A stretch of DNA of 64,000 bases, taken from positions 2,604,001 to 2,668,000 of the forward strand of contig NZ_CP100404.1 of NCBI RefSeq assembly GCF_024218775.1, written 5' to 3'. The position numbers and the translations under genes were made by a program. This DNA is from Haloarcula marina (GTDB taxonomy: Archaea > Halobacteriota > Halobacteria > Halobacteriales > Haloarculaceae). The notes beneath the pieces were generated by a model. That model saw only the letters and a list, made by a program, of their open reading frames with translations. It did no database searches and was not told the DNA's origin. Positions 56,397 to 63,187 of the stretch are shown in pieces (position 1 is the stretch's first letter; the number at the start of each line of letters is the position of its first letter).

Positions 56397-56924
56397 CTAC
56401 GCCGGCGGTTCGACGGGCGCTTCGAGTTGCGCGATGTCGACGATGAGCGTGTTGCTCGTGTCGTCGATGGCTTCGATTTCGCCCGCGACGACGAGGCCGA
56501 ACTGCGGCGTCGGTCCGGCGGCGACGGCCTGTCCGACCGAGAACTGATTGACCGACTGCTGGAGGTGGAGTTGCGCGCGGCAGGCGTCGGGGTGGTTGAC
56601 CGAGGTGAATCGAATCCGGTCGACGGTCACGTCGATGCGTTCGAACTCGCGGGCCATCGTGACCGTCTCCGTCTCTCCCAGCGGGTCCCGGCCGAGCGAC
56701 TCGTAGGCCAAGTCCGTCGGGAGATACCCGCCGTCCGGCCCGGAGAGACTCTCGACGAGGCCGAGTTGGGCGAGGCTCTGCATCTGGTTCTGGACCGTCC
56801 CCAGACTCCGGTCGACGTCGTCTGCGATGGTCTGTCCCTTCACCGGCCCGTCTTCAGAGCGGTGACGATTGACCAGCGCAGTGAGCGACTGCTCCTGACT
56901 GCTGGTCAGGTCGATTTGGACCAT
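56397..56924 (-). CDS. Winged-helix transcriptional regulator (Rrf2/MarR-like) next to antiporter
   Basis: A 175-residue DNA-binding protein. The N-terminal winged helix (about 5-75) reads SSQEQSLTALVNRHRSEDGP with TIADDVDRSLGTVQNQMQSL and the wing SLSGPDGGYLPTDLAYESL. The C-terminal half (about 85-170) is a beta-rich ligand or dimer domain with HPDACRAQLHLQQSVNQFSV. It is divergent from the antiporter gene, which it may control. The ATG at 56924 is supported by a TATA box 28 bases upstream. Confidence 0.75.
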   Translation of the reverse strand: MVQIDLTSSQEQSLTALVNRHRSEDGPVKGQTIADDVDRSLGTVQNQMQSLAQLGLVESLSGPDGGYLPTDLAYESLGRDPLGETETVTMAREFERIDVTVDRIRFTSVNHPDACRAQLHLQQSVNQFSVGQAVAAGPTPQFGLVVAGEIEAIDDTSNTLIVDIAQLEAPVEPPA

Positions 56925-56944
56925 ACCGGCACTATCAGGACGAC

Positions 56945-56956
56945 GGTGATATGTGT
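56945..56956 (-). promoter_or_regulatory. TATA-like box for the winged-helix regulator
   Basis: On the minus strand this reads ACACATATCACC, 28 bases before the ATG at 56924. It lies within the short divergent spacer shared with the antiporter, so it may be controlled by the regulator itself. Confidence 0.45.
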
Positions 56957-57024
56957 GTGGGTCCGCGGTCGTTTCTGCGAGGCGTCGGCGGAGTTTCATC
57001 CGTCCGCCGCCCCTCGTCCCGGGT

Positions 57025-58362
57025 ATGGCGTATTCGCTATCGTCGCTGCTTCCCTTCTTCGGGACGCTGGCGGTGATTCTCGTCGTCGCGCACACGCTGG
57101 GTAGTCTCAGCGGCCGACTCGGGTTTGCCCCGGTGGTCGGCGAACTCGTGACCGGCCTCGTCCTCGGTCCGTCGCTGTTGGGCGTAGTCGCCCCTAGCGT
57201 CGCGGCGCTCTTCCTCCCGGTGGACGAACGCGTCGCCGGTGTGGCGTCGCTCGGACTCGTCTTCCTCGTGGTCCTCGCGGGAACGGAGATCGACGGAGCG
57301 CGCCTCAAACGCTCGCTCGGCCCGACGGCCGCCGTCGCCATCGGTGGCACCGTCGTTCCCTTCTTCGGGGGATTCGCGCTCGCATGGGTCCTCCCCGCGT
57401 CGTTCCTCGCCGACCCGGCGCGGCGCTTCGAGTTCGCGCTGTTTCTCGGCACCGCGCTGAGTATCTCCGCCCTGCCGGTCGCGGTTCGGGTGCTGGTCGA
57501 CCTCGACGCCCTCGACACGCGGGTCGGGCAACTCACCCTCACGACGGCCGTGGTCATCGACGCCGCCGGGTGGTTGCTCCTCACCGTCGTCGCGGACGTC
57601 GTCCGGACCGGTCGGCCCGAACTGGCGCGAATCGGTGAGACCGTCGTGCTCCTCGTCGGGTTCGCACTCCTCGTCACCGTGGTCGGTCGACGCGTCGCCG
57701 CTGCGCTCTTCGACGCGACGGCGTGGACCCGGTCACCGGCACTGACAGAATTCTCGGTGGTCATCGTGGTTGCCCTCGGCGTCACCGCCGGGGCCGTCGC
57801 GCTCGGCCTCGAGGCGGTCGTCGGGGCGTTTCTCGCCGGACTGGTCGTCAGTCATCGACTCGAAGTCGGCCCGCGTCACGTCTTCCAGACCGTCACGCTC
57901 GGCTTGTTCGCGCCGGTGTTCTTCGCGACGGCGGGCCTCCGCGCGGACCTGACCAGCCTACTCACGCCCGGCGCGTTCGCCGTCGCCCTCGCCACGCTTG
58001 CGGTCGCTATCGCGGGAAAGTTCGTCGGCGTCGCCCTCGCCACGCTTGCGGTCGCTATCGCGGGAAAGTTCGTCGGCGTCGCCCTCGCCACGCTTGCGGT
58101 CGCTATCGCGGGAAAGTTCGTCGGCGTCGCCCTCGGCGCGGCGGTGACGGACCTGACCCGCGGCGAAACCGTCGCACTCGCGGTCGGCCTGAACGCCCGT
58201 GGCGCCATGGAAATCGTCGTCGCCGCCGTCGGACTCTCGCTAGGTGTTCTCACGCCGTTGCTGTACGCTGTCGTCGTCCTCGTCGCCGTCCTCACCTCGG
58301 TGATGACCCCGCCGCTTCTCAGGCGCTCGCTCGACCGCCTCCCACCGACCGCTCGGGGGTGA
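57025..58362 (+). CDS. Cation:proton antiporter (CPA2/KefB-like) with internal triplicated helix
   Basis: A 445-residue Na+/H+ or K+/H+ antiporter of the CPA2 family with about 13 helices. Conserved segments are GFAPVVGELVTGLVLGPSLL near 33, LGLVFLVVLAGTEID near 76, TALSISALPVAVRVL near 142 and VVIDAAGWLLLTVVA near 173 (the ion-site Asp). Residues 320-367 consist of three identical copies of VALATLAVAIAGKFVG, while homologues have one such segment. This adds 32 residues in the membrane. GAGTTTCAT-like DNA about 29 bases upstream could be the TATA box. Confidence 0.88.
   Translation: MAYSLSSLLPFFGTLAVILVVAHTLGSLSGRLGFAPVVGELVTGLVLGPSLLGVVAPSVAALFLPVDERVAGVASLGLVFLVVLAGTEIDGARLKRSLGPTAAVAIGGTVVPFFGGFALAWVLPASFLADPARRFEFALFLGTALSISALPVAVRVLVDLDALDTRVGQLTLTTAVVIDAAGWLLLTVVADVVRTGRPELARIGETVVLLVGFALLVTVVGRRVAAALFDATAWTRSPALTEFSVVIVVALGVTAGAVALGLEAVVGAFLAGLVVSHRLEVGPRHVFQTVTLGLFAPVFFATAGLRADLTSLLTPGAFAVALATLAVAIAGKFVGVALATLAVAIAGKFVGVALATLAVAIAGKFVGVALGAAVTDLTRGETVALAVGLNARGAMEIVVAAVGLSLGVLTPLLYAVVVLVAVLTSVMTPPLLRRSLDRLPPTARG
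57982..58135 (+). repeat. Perfect 48-bp in-frame tandem repeat, about 3.2 copies
   Basis: Copies lie at 57982-58029, 58030-58077 and 58078-58125, followed by a 10-base partial copy. All copies are identical at every base, so the expansion is recent or kept by recombination. Each unit is 16 codons and keeps the frame, giving VALATLAVAIAGKFVG three times. It is the only long perfect tandem repeat I found in the window. Confidence 0.95.
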
Positions 58363-58368
58363 CCTGCG

Positions 58369-59475
58369 TCACTCGTCCAGTAGCGCGTCGTCGCCGTGCC
58401 GGTCCCGCAGCGTCCGCAGGTACTCGCGCTGTTCGGCCACCGCCGCGGGCATCTCGGCGTAGGCGTCGGCGAACAGGTCGTCCGGGTCGCCGTCGTACGC
58501 CTCGGCCTTATCGACCATCTCGGCCAGTCTGTCGTCGACCGCTTCGTCTATCGCGTCCACTCGCTCGCGGTCCAAGAGGCCGCGGTCCCAGAGGAACGCG
58601 CCGAACCGCGCCAGCGGGTCCCGTTCGCGCCACGCCTCGACCTCTTCCTCGTCGCGGTACACGTCGGGGTCGTCGGCGGTCGTGTGCGCCCCGAAGCGGT
58701 ACTGGACGAACTCCAACAGCGTGGGCCGCAACTGCCCGTCTTCGGGGTCCAGCGCCCGGTCGCGGGCGGCCTTCGTGACGACGTAACTCGCCAGCGGGTC
58801 CATGCCGTCGACCTGCACGCCGTCGAACCCGTAGGCGGTCGCTTTCTGCGCGAACGTCTCGCTCGCCGTCTGTCGCTCCCGCGGGACCGAAATCGCCCAC
58901 TGGTTGTTGTTGCAGACGAAGATAGTCGGCGTGTCGAACACGCCCGCGAAGTTCATCGCCTCGTGGAAGTCCCCCTCAGAGGTCGCGCCGTCCCCGAAGT
59001 GCGCGACGCCGACCCGGTCAGCGCCGTCCCGTTTCGCCGCCCACGACCACCCGACTGCGTGGGGGATGTGCCCGGCGATAGAGATGTTCAGCGGGAAGAC
59101 GTTCACGTCGGCGAGCGCGGCGTTCCCTCGCTCGTGGCCCATCCAGTACAGCAGGTATTCCCACGGGAGGCCGCGGGCGACGACGGCCCCGTGTTCGCGG
59201 TACTGATAGAAGATGGTGTCCGCGTCCGAGAGCGCGTACGTCGACCCGATTTGCGACCCCTCCTGTCCGGCCAGCGACGCGTAGGTCCCGAGGCGGCCCT
59301 GTCGCTGGAGGCTAATCATCCGCTCGTCGAAGCGGCGGGCGAGTTTCATGTCCCGGTACATCCCGACCAGTCGCTCGTCCCCCAAGTCCGGCACGAGGTC
59401 GGGTGCGACGACCTCGCCGTCGGGGTCGAGAACCTGTACGCGGTCGTCGGGACTCCGGTCGAGGACGTCTTCCAT
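58369..59475 (-). CDS. pdhA: Thiamine-dependent 2-oxo-acid dehydrogenase E1 component, alpha subunit
   Basis: A 368-residue E1-alpha subunit (pyruvate or branched-chain type). The TPP motif is GDGATSEGDFHEAMNFAG ending in CNNN (about 163-193), with the phosphorylation-loop-like region RFGAHTTADDPDVY near 265. The first segment LVGMYRDMKLARRFDERMIS is characteristic. Normally E1-beta, E2 and E3 genes follow, but here none is adjacent, so it is an orphan copy or its partners lie elsewhere. A CCTTTTTGCC element 28 bases upstream is its TATA box. Confidence 0.88.
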   Translation of the reverse strand: MEDVLDRSPDDRVQVLDPDGEVVAPDLVPDLGDERLVGMYRDMKLARRFDERMISLQRQGRLGTYASLAGQEGSQIGSTYALSDADTIFYQYREHGAVVARGLPWEYLLYWMGHERGNAALADVNVFPLNISIAGHIPHAVGWSWAAKRDGADRVGVAHFGDGATSEGDFHEAMNFAGVFDTPTIFVCNNNQWAISVPRERQTASETFAQKATAYGFDGVQVDGMDPLASYVVTKAARDRALDPEDGQLRPTLLEFVQYRFGAHTTADDPDVYRDEEEVEAWRERDPLARFGAFLWDRGLLDRERVDAIDEAVDDRLAEMVDKAEAYDGDPDDLFADAYAEMPAAVAEQREYLRTLRDRHGDDALLDE

Positions 59476-59520
59476 CTCGTCTCTACAGACACGGCAGACC
59501 GGCAAAAAGGTGGCCCGCGT

Positions 59521-61953: not shown

Positions 61954-63129
61954 TCAGTCGTCGTCCTTGCCTTTCTTTCGCTTCTTCTTTCGTTTCTTCT
62001 TCTTCTTCTTCTTTCGCTTCTTCTTCCGCTTCTTTCGCTTCTTCCGTCGCTTCTTCTTCCGCTTCTTTCGCTTCTTCTTCCGCTTCTTCTTCCGCTTCTT
62101 CCGCTTCTTCTTCCGCTTCTTCCGCTTCTTCTTCCGCTTCTTCCGCTTCTCCTCACTCTTTCCGTGTGGCCCGGCATGGTCCGGCGGCCCCGCGTGGTCG
62201 GGGGCGTTCGAGTGGTCCGGCGGTCCCGCGTGGTCCGGCGGCCCCGCGTGGTCCGGCGGCCCGGTGTGGTCGTCTTCGTCATCGTCGTCTCTGTCGTCCC
62301 TCTCGTCGTAGTCGTGGTCGTCGTCCTTCTCGCCCTCGTCGTCTTCCTCGTCTTTGTCGTCGTGGTCGTCTCTCTCGTCGTAGTCCTCGTCATCGTGGTC
62401 GTCGTCCTCCGCGTCTTTGTCGTCGTGGTCGTCGTCTCGCTCGCACGACCCAGTTCGAATCGTCACCCTGTGGTCTAACTCGAGGGCGTATCGATCGGGG
62501 TCGTCCAAATCGCCAGAGAGGACCTCCCAGCCGGAGAGTTGGCCGTCGTAGTACTCGCCGAACAGCGCGGCCTGTTCGTTGAACATGGGGTCGATAGTCA
62601 GCGAGAACGAGCGCCCGTCGAGACCGTCGAGGACGCCGCCGTCCGTCCGTTCGGCCGCCCACGTCCAGTCGATGTCGGCCGACTCGTCGCGGATGTCCCA
62701 CCGGTCGTAGTTGCTGTCGGCGTCGTAGAAGTCGTCTTTCACGACCCACTCGGCCGACGACGGGATGCCGTCGATGGCGAACGACACCGCGCCGCCGTTC
62801 GTCCCGTCGTCGAACGCGTCGTGGACCAACACGAGGCTCAGACCGTTCGGCCCGTCGTAGAGGAACACGATGCTCGTGTCCTGCTTCTGGAGGGCCGTCG
62901 TCCCGGTCGAACTGAAGTAGCGGTCTTCTAGTCCCCATCGGTAGAACTCCGTCACCGGACGGTCGCCCGAAAGCGGCGTAATCGAGCGACACCGGCCATC
63001 CTGTTCGACGACGTAATTGTGCTCGCGGGCGCTCGCGCTCCCGGCGGCGAGGGCGAGACCGCCGACCGTGGCCGTCGCACTCGCGAGGAACTGTCTGCGC
63101 GTCCGCGATTCCGGAGGGTCGAACGTCAT
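61954..63129 (-). CDS. Tat-exported protein with acidic block, GPPDHA repeats and polybasic tail
   Basis: A 391-residue protein. A Tat signal (SRTRRQFLASATATVGG; probable cut after SASA at 34) leads to a globular domain (35-229) that I do not recognise, with a possible disulfide between Cys47 and Cys229. Residues 230-288 are almost only Asp, Glu, His, Lys and Arg, mostly acidic. Residues 289-322 are GPPDHA-type repeats. Residues 328-386 are 59 uninterrupted Lys/Arg, followed by GKDDD. Such a basic end is most unusual for haloarchaea. It is made from its own promoter, divergent from aIF2-beta. Confidence 0.85.
   Translation of the reverse strand: MTFDPPESRTRRQFLASATATVGGLALAAGSASAREHNYVVEQDGRCRSITPLSGDRPVTEFYRWGLEDRYFSSTGTTALQKQDTSIVFLYDGPNGLSLVLVHDAFDDGTNGGAVSFAIDGIPSSAEWVVKDDFYDADSNYDRWDIRDESADIDWTWAAERTDGGVLDGLDGRSFSLTIDPMFNEQAALFGEYYDGQLSGWEVLSGDLDDPDRYALELDHRVTIRTGSCERDDDHDDKDAEDDDHDDEDYDERDDHDDKDEEDDEGEKDDDHDYDERDDRDDDDEDDHTGPPDHAGPPDHAGPPDHSNAPDHAGPPDHAGPHGKSEEKRKKRKKKRKKRKKKRKKRKKKRKKKRKKRKKKRRKKRKKRKKKRKKKKKKKRKKKRKKGKDDD
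61972..62148 (-). repeat. Low-complexity Lys/Arg-coding repeat, period about 21 bases
   Basis: Codons AAG and CGG (or AAA, CGA) repeat, with a seven-residue pattern KKRKKKR clearest near its 5' end and degenerating toward the stop. Synonymous changes (CGG to CGA, AAG to AAA) show that the repeat has drifted while its charge was kept. The coding strand is nearly all purine. Confidence 0.85.
62164..62265 (-). repeat. GPPDHA-coding repeats (18-base period)
   Basis: This codes for GPPDHA three times (the third ends GPPDHS), then NAPDHA, GPPDHA and GPH. It separates the acidic block from the basic tail of the same protein and looks like a flexible, Pro- and His-containing spacer. Confidence 0.8.
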
Positions 63130-63153
63130 AGCGAAACGGACCGCCCAAATGCC

Positions 63154-63163
63154 GATTGTTATT
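63154..63163 (-). promoter_or_regulatory. TATA-like box for the polybasic-tail protein
   Basis: On the minus strand this reads AATAACAATC, about 29 bases before the ATG at 63129. It supports that start over an upstream in-frame ATG that would spoil the Tat signal. Confidence 0.45.
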
Positions 63164-63187
63164 CTGAGCATATCGGCACGGTAAACG

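What the first reader, a model, noticed from the sequence alone, without database searches (positions are those of the whole stretch)
57982..58135. Perfect 48-bp x3 tandem repeat in a membrane helix of the antiporter
Three base-identical 16-codon copies add 32 residues of hydrophobic helix to a CPA2 antiporter. In-frame gain or loss of copies could change helix number or topology, giving a reversible switch of ion transport. No synonymous difference exists, so the event is young or continuously homogenised.
Basis: partly seen in the sequence, partly recalled or inferred. Interest (0 to 1): 0.65.

Follow-up and report, generated by a model that had tools for sequence, protein, structure and literature searches.

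The report
Young tripled helix in salt antiporter
In one salt-loving archaeon, a 48-base stretch of an ordinary sodium/proton-exchanger gene has recently been copied in frame to three identical copies; this is probably a chance copying slip in a gene that has a backup, and nothing yet shows that it works as a switch.

Summary
The repeat is real in the given sequence. A perfect period-48 run spans 57981-58135: three identical 16-codon units plus an 11-bp partial fourth. It lies in frame in a CPA2 (PF00999) antiporter gene at 57025-58362. It triples the helix with the family-invariant lysine (K305 in NapA, K307 in KefC). The order-wide search found no other genome with the extra copies. In 110 homologues the same interval is 66-70 residues long; here it is 101. 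The syntenic orthologue in a congeneric genome and the paralogue in the same genome each have one copy. The single-copy ancestor is therefore secure, and the tripling is young and so far seen only in this genome. The inferred ancestor has an 11-bp direct repeat exactly 48 bp apart, the expected substrate for replication slippage. AlphaFold keeps the NapA fold, with one copy filling the normal helix position and the other two forming a low-confidence helical insert. A reversible switch of ion transport is not supported by anything testable here: no reads or conspecific strains were available, and no relative keeps an array. Best reading: an ordinary slippage expansion, tolerated or mildly impairing, in a gene with an intact paralogue. 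In-frame de novo repeats that can revert are known elsewhere (PMC4169377, PMC3477136).

The parts
57025..58362 (+). CPA2-type cation/proton antiporter gene (445 aa, NapA-like fold)
   Evidence: PF00999 E 1.3e-51; NapA best in PDB by sequence and by structure, Z 43.6, rmsd 2.5 over 379 residues
57981..58135 (+). Perfect period-48 tandem array, 3.23 copies
57982..58029 (+). Unit 1, residues 320-335 VALATLAVAIAGKFVG (K332)
58030..58077 (+). Unit 2, residues 336-351 (K348)
58078..58125 (+). Unit 3, residues 352-367 (K364); aligned and modelled as the canonical core helix
   Evidence: K364 is an invariant column; helix 348-372 has pLDDT about 95 over most of its length
58125..58135 (+). 11-bp partial fourth copy CGTCGCCCTCG; in the single-copy ancestor it pairs with the identical 11-mer at 57981-57991 as a direct repeat 48 bp apart
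   Evidence: the same 11-mer sits at the same codons in the G010 orthologue
56400..56918 (-). Divergent neighbour: HrcA/Rrf2-type winged-helix regulator
   Evidence: PF03444 E 3.6e-24; same position in G010
58369..59505 (-). Convergent neighbour: pyruvate dehydrogenase E1 alpha
   Evidence: TIGR03181 above cut-off; same position in G010

Best explanation
This is a recent, lineage-specific in-frame expansion from one copy to three of a 16-codon stretch of the core-domain helix that carries the conserved lysine of an otherwise ordinary CPA2 antiporter. Most likely mechanism: replication slippage, or unequal exchange, between two 11-bp direct repeats (CGTCGCCCTCG) lying exactly 48 bp apart in the single-copy ancestor. 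This made the second copy, and the resulting perfect repeat then readily gave the third. Because 48 is a multiple of 3, the frame survived. In the protein one copy, most simply the last, fills the normal helix position. The other two are probably extruded as a loosely packed hydrophobic helical insert before it. Transport is likely unchanged or reduced, and is tolerated because a second single-copy homologue exists in the same genome. The array should lose copies by slippage at an ordinary tandem-repeat rate, but it is not a selected switch. Shown here: the anatomy, single-copy ancestry, youth, and the flanking direct repeat. Inferred: the slippage event, the extruded insert, the effect on activity and the instability.
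For: Three identical units, no difference in 107 consecutive comparisons. In 110 homologues the interval from AP-x-FF to NARGxxE is 66-70 residues, against 101 here. Only the own genome aligns end to end with the triple-copy query; every other hit breaks at the array. The G010 gene is a syntenic orthologue, with the same divergent regulator and convergent PDH E1 alpha, and has one copy. The paralogue on contig C2 is intact with one copy. The 11-bp direct repeat borders the duplicated block exactly, and its downstream member is present in G010. Replication slippage at direct repeats bordering the template, and reversion at 9e-7 to 4e-5, are documented for de novo in-frame repeats in a beta-lactamase gene (PMC4169377). 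AlphaFold gives pLDDT about 95 for copy 3 and 48-65 for copies 1 and 2, and the whole still aligns with NapA at Z 43.6. Outside the array all family-invariant residues are kept, and long-term dN/dS to G010 is about 0.34.
Against: No reads or conspecific strains were available, so neither a collapse or expansion error of the assembly nor copy variation could be tested. The modelled register depends on where MAFFT placed the gap; since the copies are identical, copy 1 or 2 could fill the position instead. No activity data exist. The upstream 11-mer is only partly present in G010, so its age is uncertain. Exact 11-bp direct repeats 20-100 bp apart are not rare (about 20 other pairs in the window outside low-complexity DNA), so the flanking repeat fits slippage but does not prove it.
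Confidence: 0.68

Rival explanations
1. Reversible phase-variable switch: in-frame gain and loss of units alters helix packing or topology and turns this antiporter's transport down or up, with functional one-copy revertants arising at repeat-slippage rates.
For: The array is perfect, in frame and young, and it hits the helix with the invariant lysine. Precedents exist for repeat-number toggling of an enzyme (PMC4169377) and for repeat-dependent stress tolerance in tolA with contractions at 6.9e-5 (PMC3477136).
Against: No copy-number variation has been seen, no relative keeps an array, and an intact paralogue could mask a switch. Perfect arrays also occur elsewhere in this genome, including largely outside genes.
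Confidence: 0.06
2. Assembly artefact: the real chromosome has one (or another number of) copies.
For: No reads could be inspected, and tandem repeats are a known source of copy-number error.
Against: The array is 155 bp, shorter than a long read and close to or below common short-read lengths. The genome is in 3 contigs, 99.9% complete. An error would have to yield exact in-frame units twice.
Confidence: 0.08
3. Adaptive elongation fixed by selection: the three-copy helix gives a changed antiporter, for example altered ion coupling or regulation by the hydrophobic insert.
For: The reading frame and all invariant residues are kept, and three copies rather than two keep an odd number of helix units, which could spare the topology downstream (inference).
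Against: No relative shows it. The insert is low-confidence in the model, and the array is too young to show purifying selection.
Confidence: 0.05
4. First step of gene decay: the expansion inactivates the transporter, now redundant, and the gene will degrade.
For: An intact paralogue on C2; low-confidence extra helices in a core domain.
Against: No stop, frameshift or loss of invariant residues elsewhere.
Confidence: 0.13

Closest known systems
De novo in-frame tandem repeats in the Burkholderia penA beta-lactamase gene (PMC4169377)
   Same: In-frame duplication of a short coding block bordered by direct repeats, without a pre-existing array; slippage-type origin and expected reversibility.
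   Different: penA repeats were selected in the laboratory, change a loop of a soluble enzyme, and have measured phenotypes and reversion; here three copies lie in a membrane helix and no phenotype is known.
tolA intragenic tandem repeats of E. coli (PMC3477136)
   Same: In-frame copy number within a coding sequence, likely to vary by contraction.
   Different: tolA copy number is highly variable among strains and has tested phenotypes; here no variation is known and relatives have a single copy.
NapA Na+/H+ antiporter of Thermus thermophilus (4bwz, 5bz2) and KefC (8bxg)
   Same: Same CPA2 fold and the same lysine helix (K305 in NapA, K307 in KefC).
   Different: One copy of the helix; the window protein has 32 more residues there and has I178-D179 where NapA has D156-D157.

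Membership tests
CPA2 / PF00999 antiporters | Match to the Na_H_Exchanger profile | tested here: met
   E 1.3e-51, 176 bits against a cut-off of 26
CPA2 / PF00999 antiporters | NhaA/NapA fold | tested here: met
   AlphaFold model against NapA 4bwz: Z 43.6, rmsd 2.5, 379 residues
CPA2 / PF00999 antiporters | Invariant ion-binding Asp (NapA D157) and core-helix Lys (NapA K305) | tested here: met
   D179 and K364 are invariant columns and align with D157 and K305; the Lys is present three times
NapA-type electrogenic DD motif | Second Asp (NapA D156) | tested here: not met
   I178 at that position, shared with the close haloarchaeal relatives
De novo slippage-derived in-frame tandem repeat | Identical in-frame copies where relatives have one | tested here: met
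De novo slippage-derived in-frame tandem repeat | Direct repeat bordering the duplicated block | tested here: met
   CGTCGCCCTCG 48 bp apart in the inferred ancestor
Phase-variable (contingency) locus | Copy number varies within a population or among strains | not testable with these tools
   No reads and no conspecific genome held; related species have one copy
Phase-variable (contingency) locus | Repeat-bearing state conserved among relatives | tested here: not met
   No other genome in 392 of the order has the extra copies

The most novel reading that the evidence does not exclude
A contingency locus in an archaeon that works by repeating a whole core helix of an ion transporter: one- and three-copy states interconvert by slippage and give antiporters of different activity or stoichiometry.
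Probability: 0.06. Interest if true: 0.7.

Novelty: new member of a known kind. Interest (0 to 1): 0.24.

Why it matters
If the three-copy protein folds and works, it is a natural experiment in how a polytopic membrane protein copes with two extra copies of a core helix, each with the functionally placed lysine. If copies are lost and regained at repeat rates with a change in transport, it would be a rare case of slippage switching of a transporter's structure in archaea. As it stands it is a clean, young example of a slippage expansion.

Tried and rejected
Looked for any homologue with extra copies by using the triple-copy protein as query, for which such a gene would align across residues 336-351: none in genus, family (146) or order (392 genomes) searches, nor in 80 loci of genome contigs; plasmid hits were all under 60% identity and were not examined one by one. 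Looked for other copies of the unit in the genome: none. Compared the density of perfect tandem arrays: the own-genome sample of 462 kb, window included, has a few others (157 bp x 2, 30 bp x 4, 36 bp x 2.3), and two congeners have two or three short ones per 400 kb. So the genome is at most slightly repeat-rich and the array is not unique in kind. A first spacing script used too narrow a pattern and gave no homologues; it was redone. A single-copy version of the window protein could not be folded (changed sequences are not accepted), so a natural single-copy homologue, L005, was folded instead; it has one helix 315-340 there. The small plasmid gave no identification of the strain. Paper searches found no report of helix duplication in an antiporter.

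Full report
OBSERVATION. The array is present exactly as described. The maximal exact period-48 run covers 57981-58135 (155 bp, 3.23 copies), and TRF gives period 48, 99% matches, score 311. In codon phase each unit codes VALATLAVAIAGKFVG, at residues 320-335, 336-351 and 352-367 of a 445-residue protein (gene 57025-58362, + strand). The unit is found nowhere else in the 3.74-Mb genome, which is held as three contigs.

WHAT THE GENE IS. It matches PF00999 at 1.3e-51, and its best solved relatives are NapA of Thermus thermophilus by sequence and by structure of the AlphaFold model (Z 43.6, rmsd 2.5 over 379 residues). In the phmmer alignment the GK of the unit meets NapA K305, and D179 meets D157; NapA D156 is replaced by I178. 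The duplicated helix is thus the core-domain helix with the family-invariant lysine. The literature calls it TM10 or TM11 depending on numbering: K305 in NapA forms a salt bridge with D156, and K307 in KefC bonds to the half-helix break points (PMC11150392).

ANCESTRAL STATE. In 110 distinct homologues the interval from the AP-x-FF motif to NARGxxE is 66-70 residues (103 of them exactly 69); in the window gene it is 101. In searches of the genus, the family and 392 genomes of the order, every hit to the triple-copy query breaks at the array except the window gene itself. In G010, a congener, the gene lies between the same divergent HrcA/Rrf2-like regulator and the same convergent PDH E1 alpha gene, and has one copy. 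The own genome has a 59%-identical paralogue on contig C2, also single-copy and uninterrupted. The species was not identified.

HOW IT AROSE. With two units removed, the inferred ancestor has CGTCGCCCTCG at both ends of a 48-bp block. The downstream 11-mer is at the same codons in G010, and the upstream one is partly there. [quoted passage not shown] A second step on the then perfect repeat gives three copies. No differences in 107 comparisons puts an upper limit of about 3% divergence on the age (95% limit, 3/107), unless copies were homogenised. dN and dS to G010, array excluded, are 0.26 and 0.76, so the gene was under purifying selection before the event.

WHAT IT DOES TO THE PROTEIN. Hydropathy stays at TM level with no dip across about 50 residues for three copies. 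AlphaFold places residues 348-372 (unit 3 plus flanks) as the core helix, mostly at pLDDT about 95, and makes residues 315-330 and 334-344 (units 1 and 2) short helices at pLDDT 48-65. The single-copy homologue L005 has one helix, 315-340, there. This is consistent with two copies being pushed out as a loose helical insert. The register is set by the alignment gap, however, and identical copies are interchangeable. No result here says the protein is active, inactive or altered.

VERDICT ON THE SWITCH. Phase variation needs variation. None could be looked for within the strain, and across species the array is a singleton. A few perfect arrays, one of them mostly between genes, occur in a 462-kb sample of the same genome. 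The economical reading is a young slippage expansion in a gene whose loss would be buffered by a paralogue. By analogy with penA (9e-7 to 4e-5) and tolA (6.9e-5) it should contract at measurable rates, but measurable instability is a property of any such repeat, not evidence of a switch.

Noticed in passing
window 61954-63171 (-), DNA repeats 61973-62438: 405-aa ORF with an N-terminal region that looks like a twin-arginine signal, then Asp-rich, GPPDHA-type and long Arg/Lys-rich low-complexity tracts at the C-terminus; no NCBIfam match. Repeat-rich, possibly length-variable.
   Followed up: no
L131 15587-15708 (G000:C1 about 1515587-1515708): Perfect 30-bp x 4 tandem array at the 3' ends of two convergent ORFs; each unit holds stop codons in one frame.
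   Followed up: partly
L143 8335-8648 (G000 contig C3, 18 kb): Perfect 157-bp tandem duplication at the 3' end of a gene that reads like a tyrosine recombinase (name from reading the sequence, not tested).
   Followed up: partly
window 57556-57561: This haloarchaeal antiporter clade has Ile-Asp where NapA has Asp-Asp (I178-D179), yet keeps the core-helix Lys: neither the DD nor the KefC-type QD motif.
   Followed up: partly
window 56400-59505; L084: Conserved neighbourhood in two congeneric genomes: winged-helix regulator, antiporter, PDH E1 alpha.
   Followed up: partly
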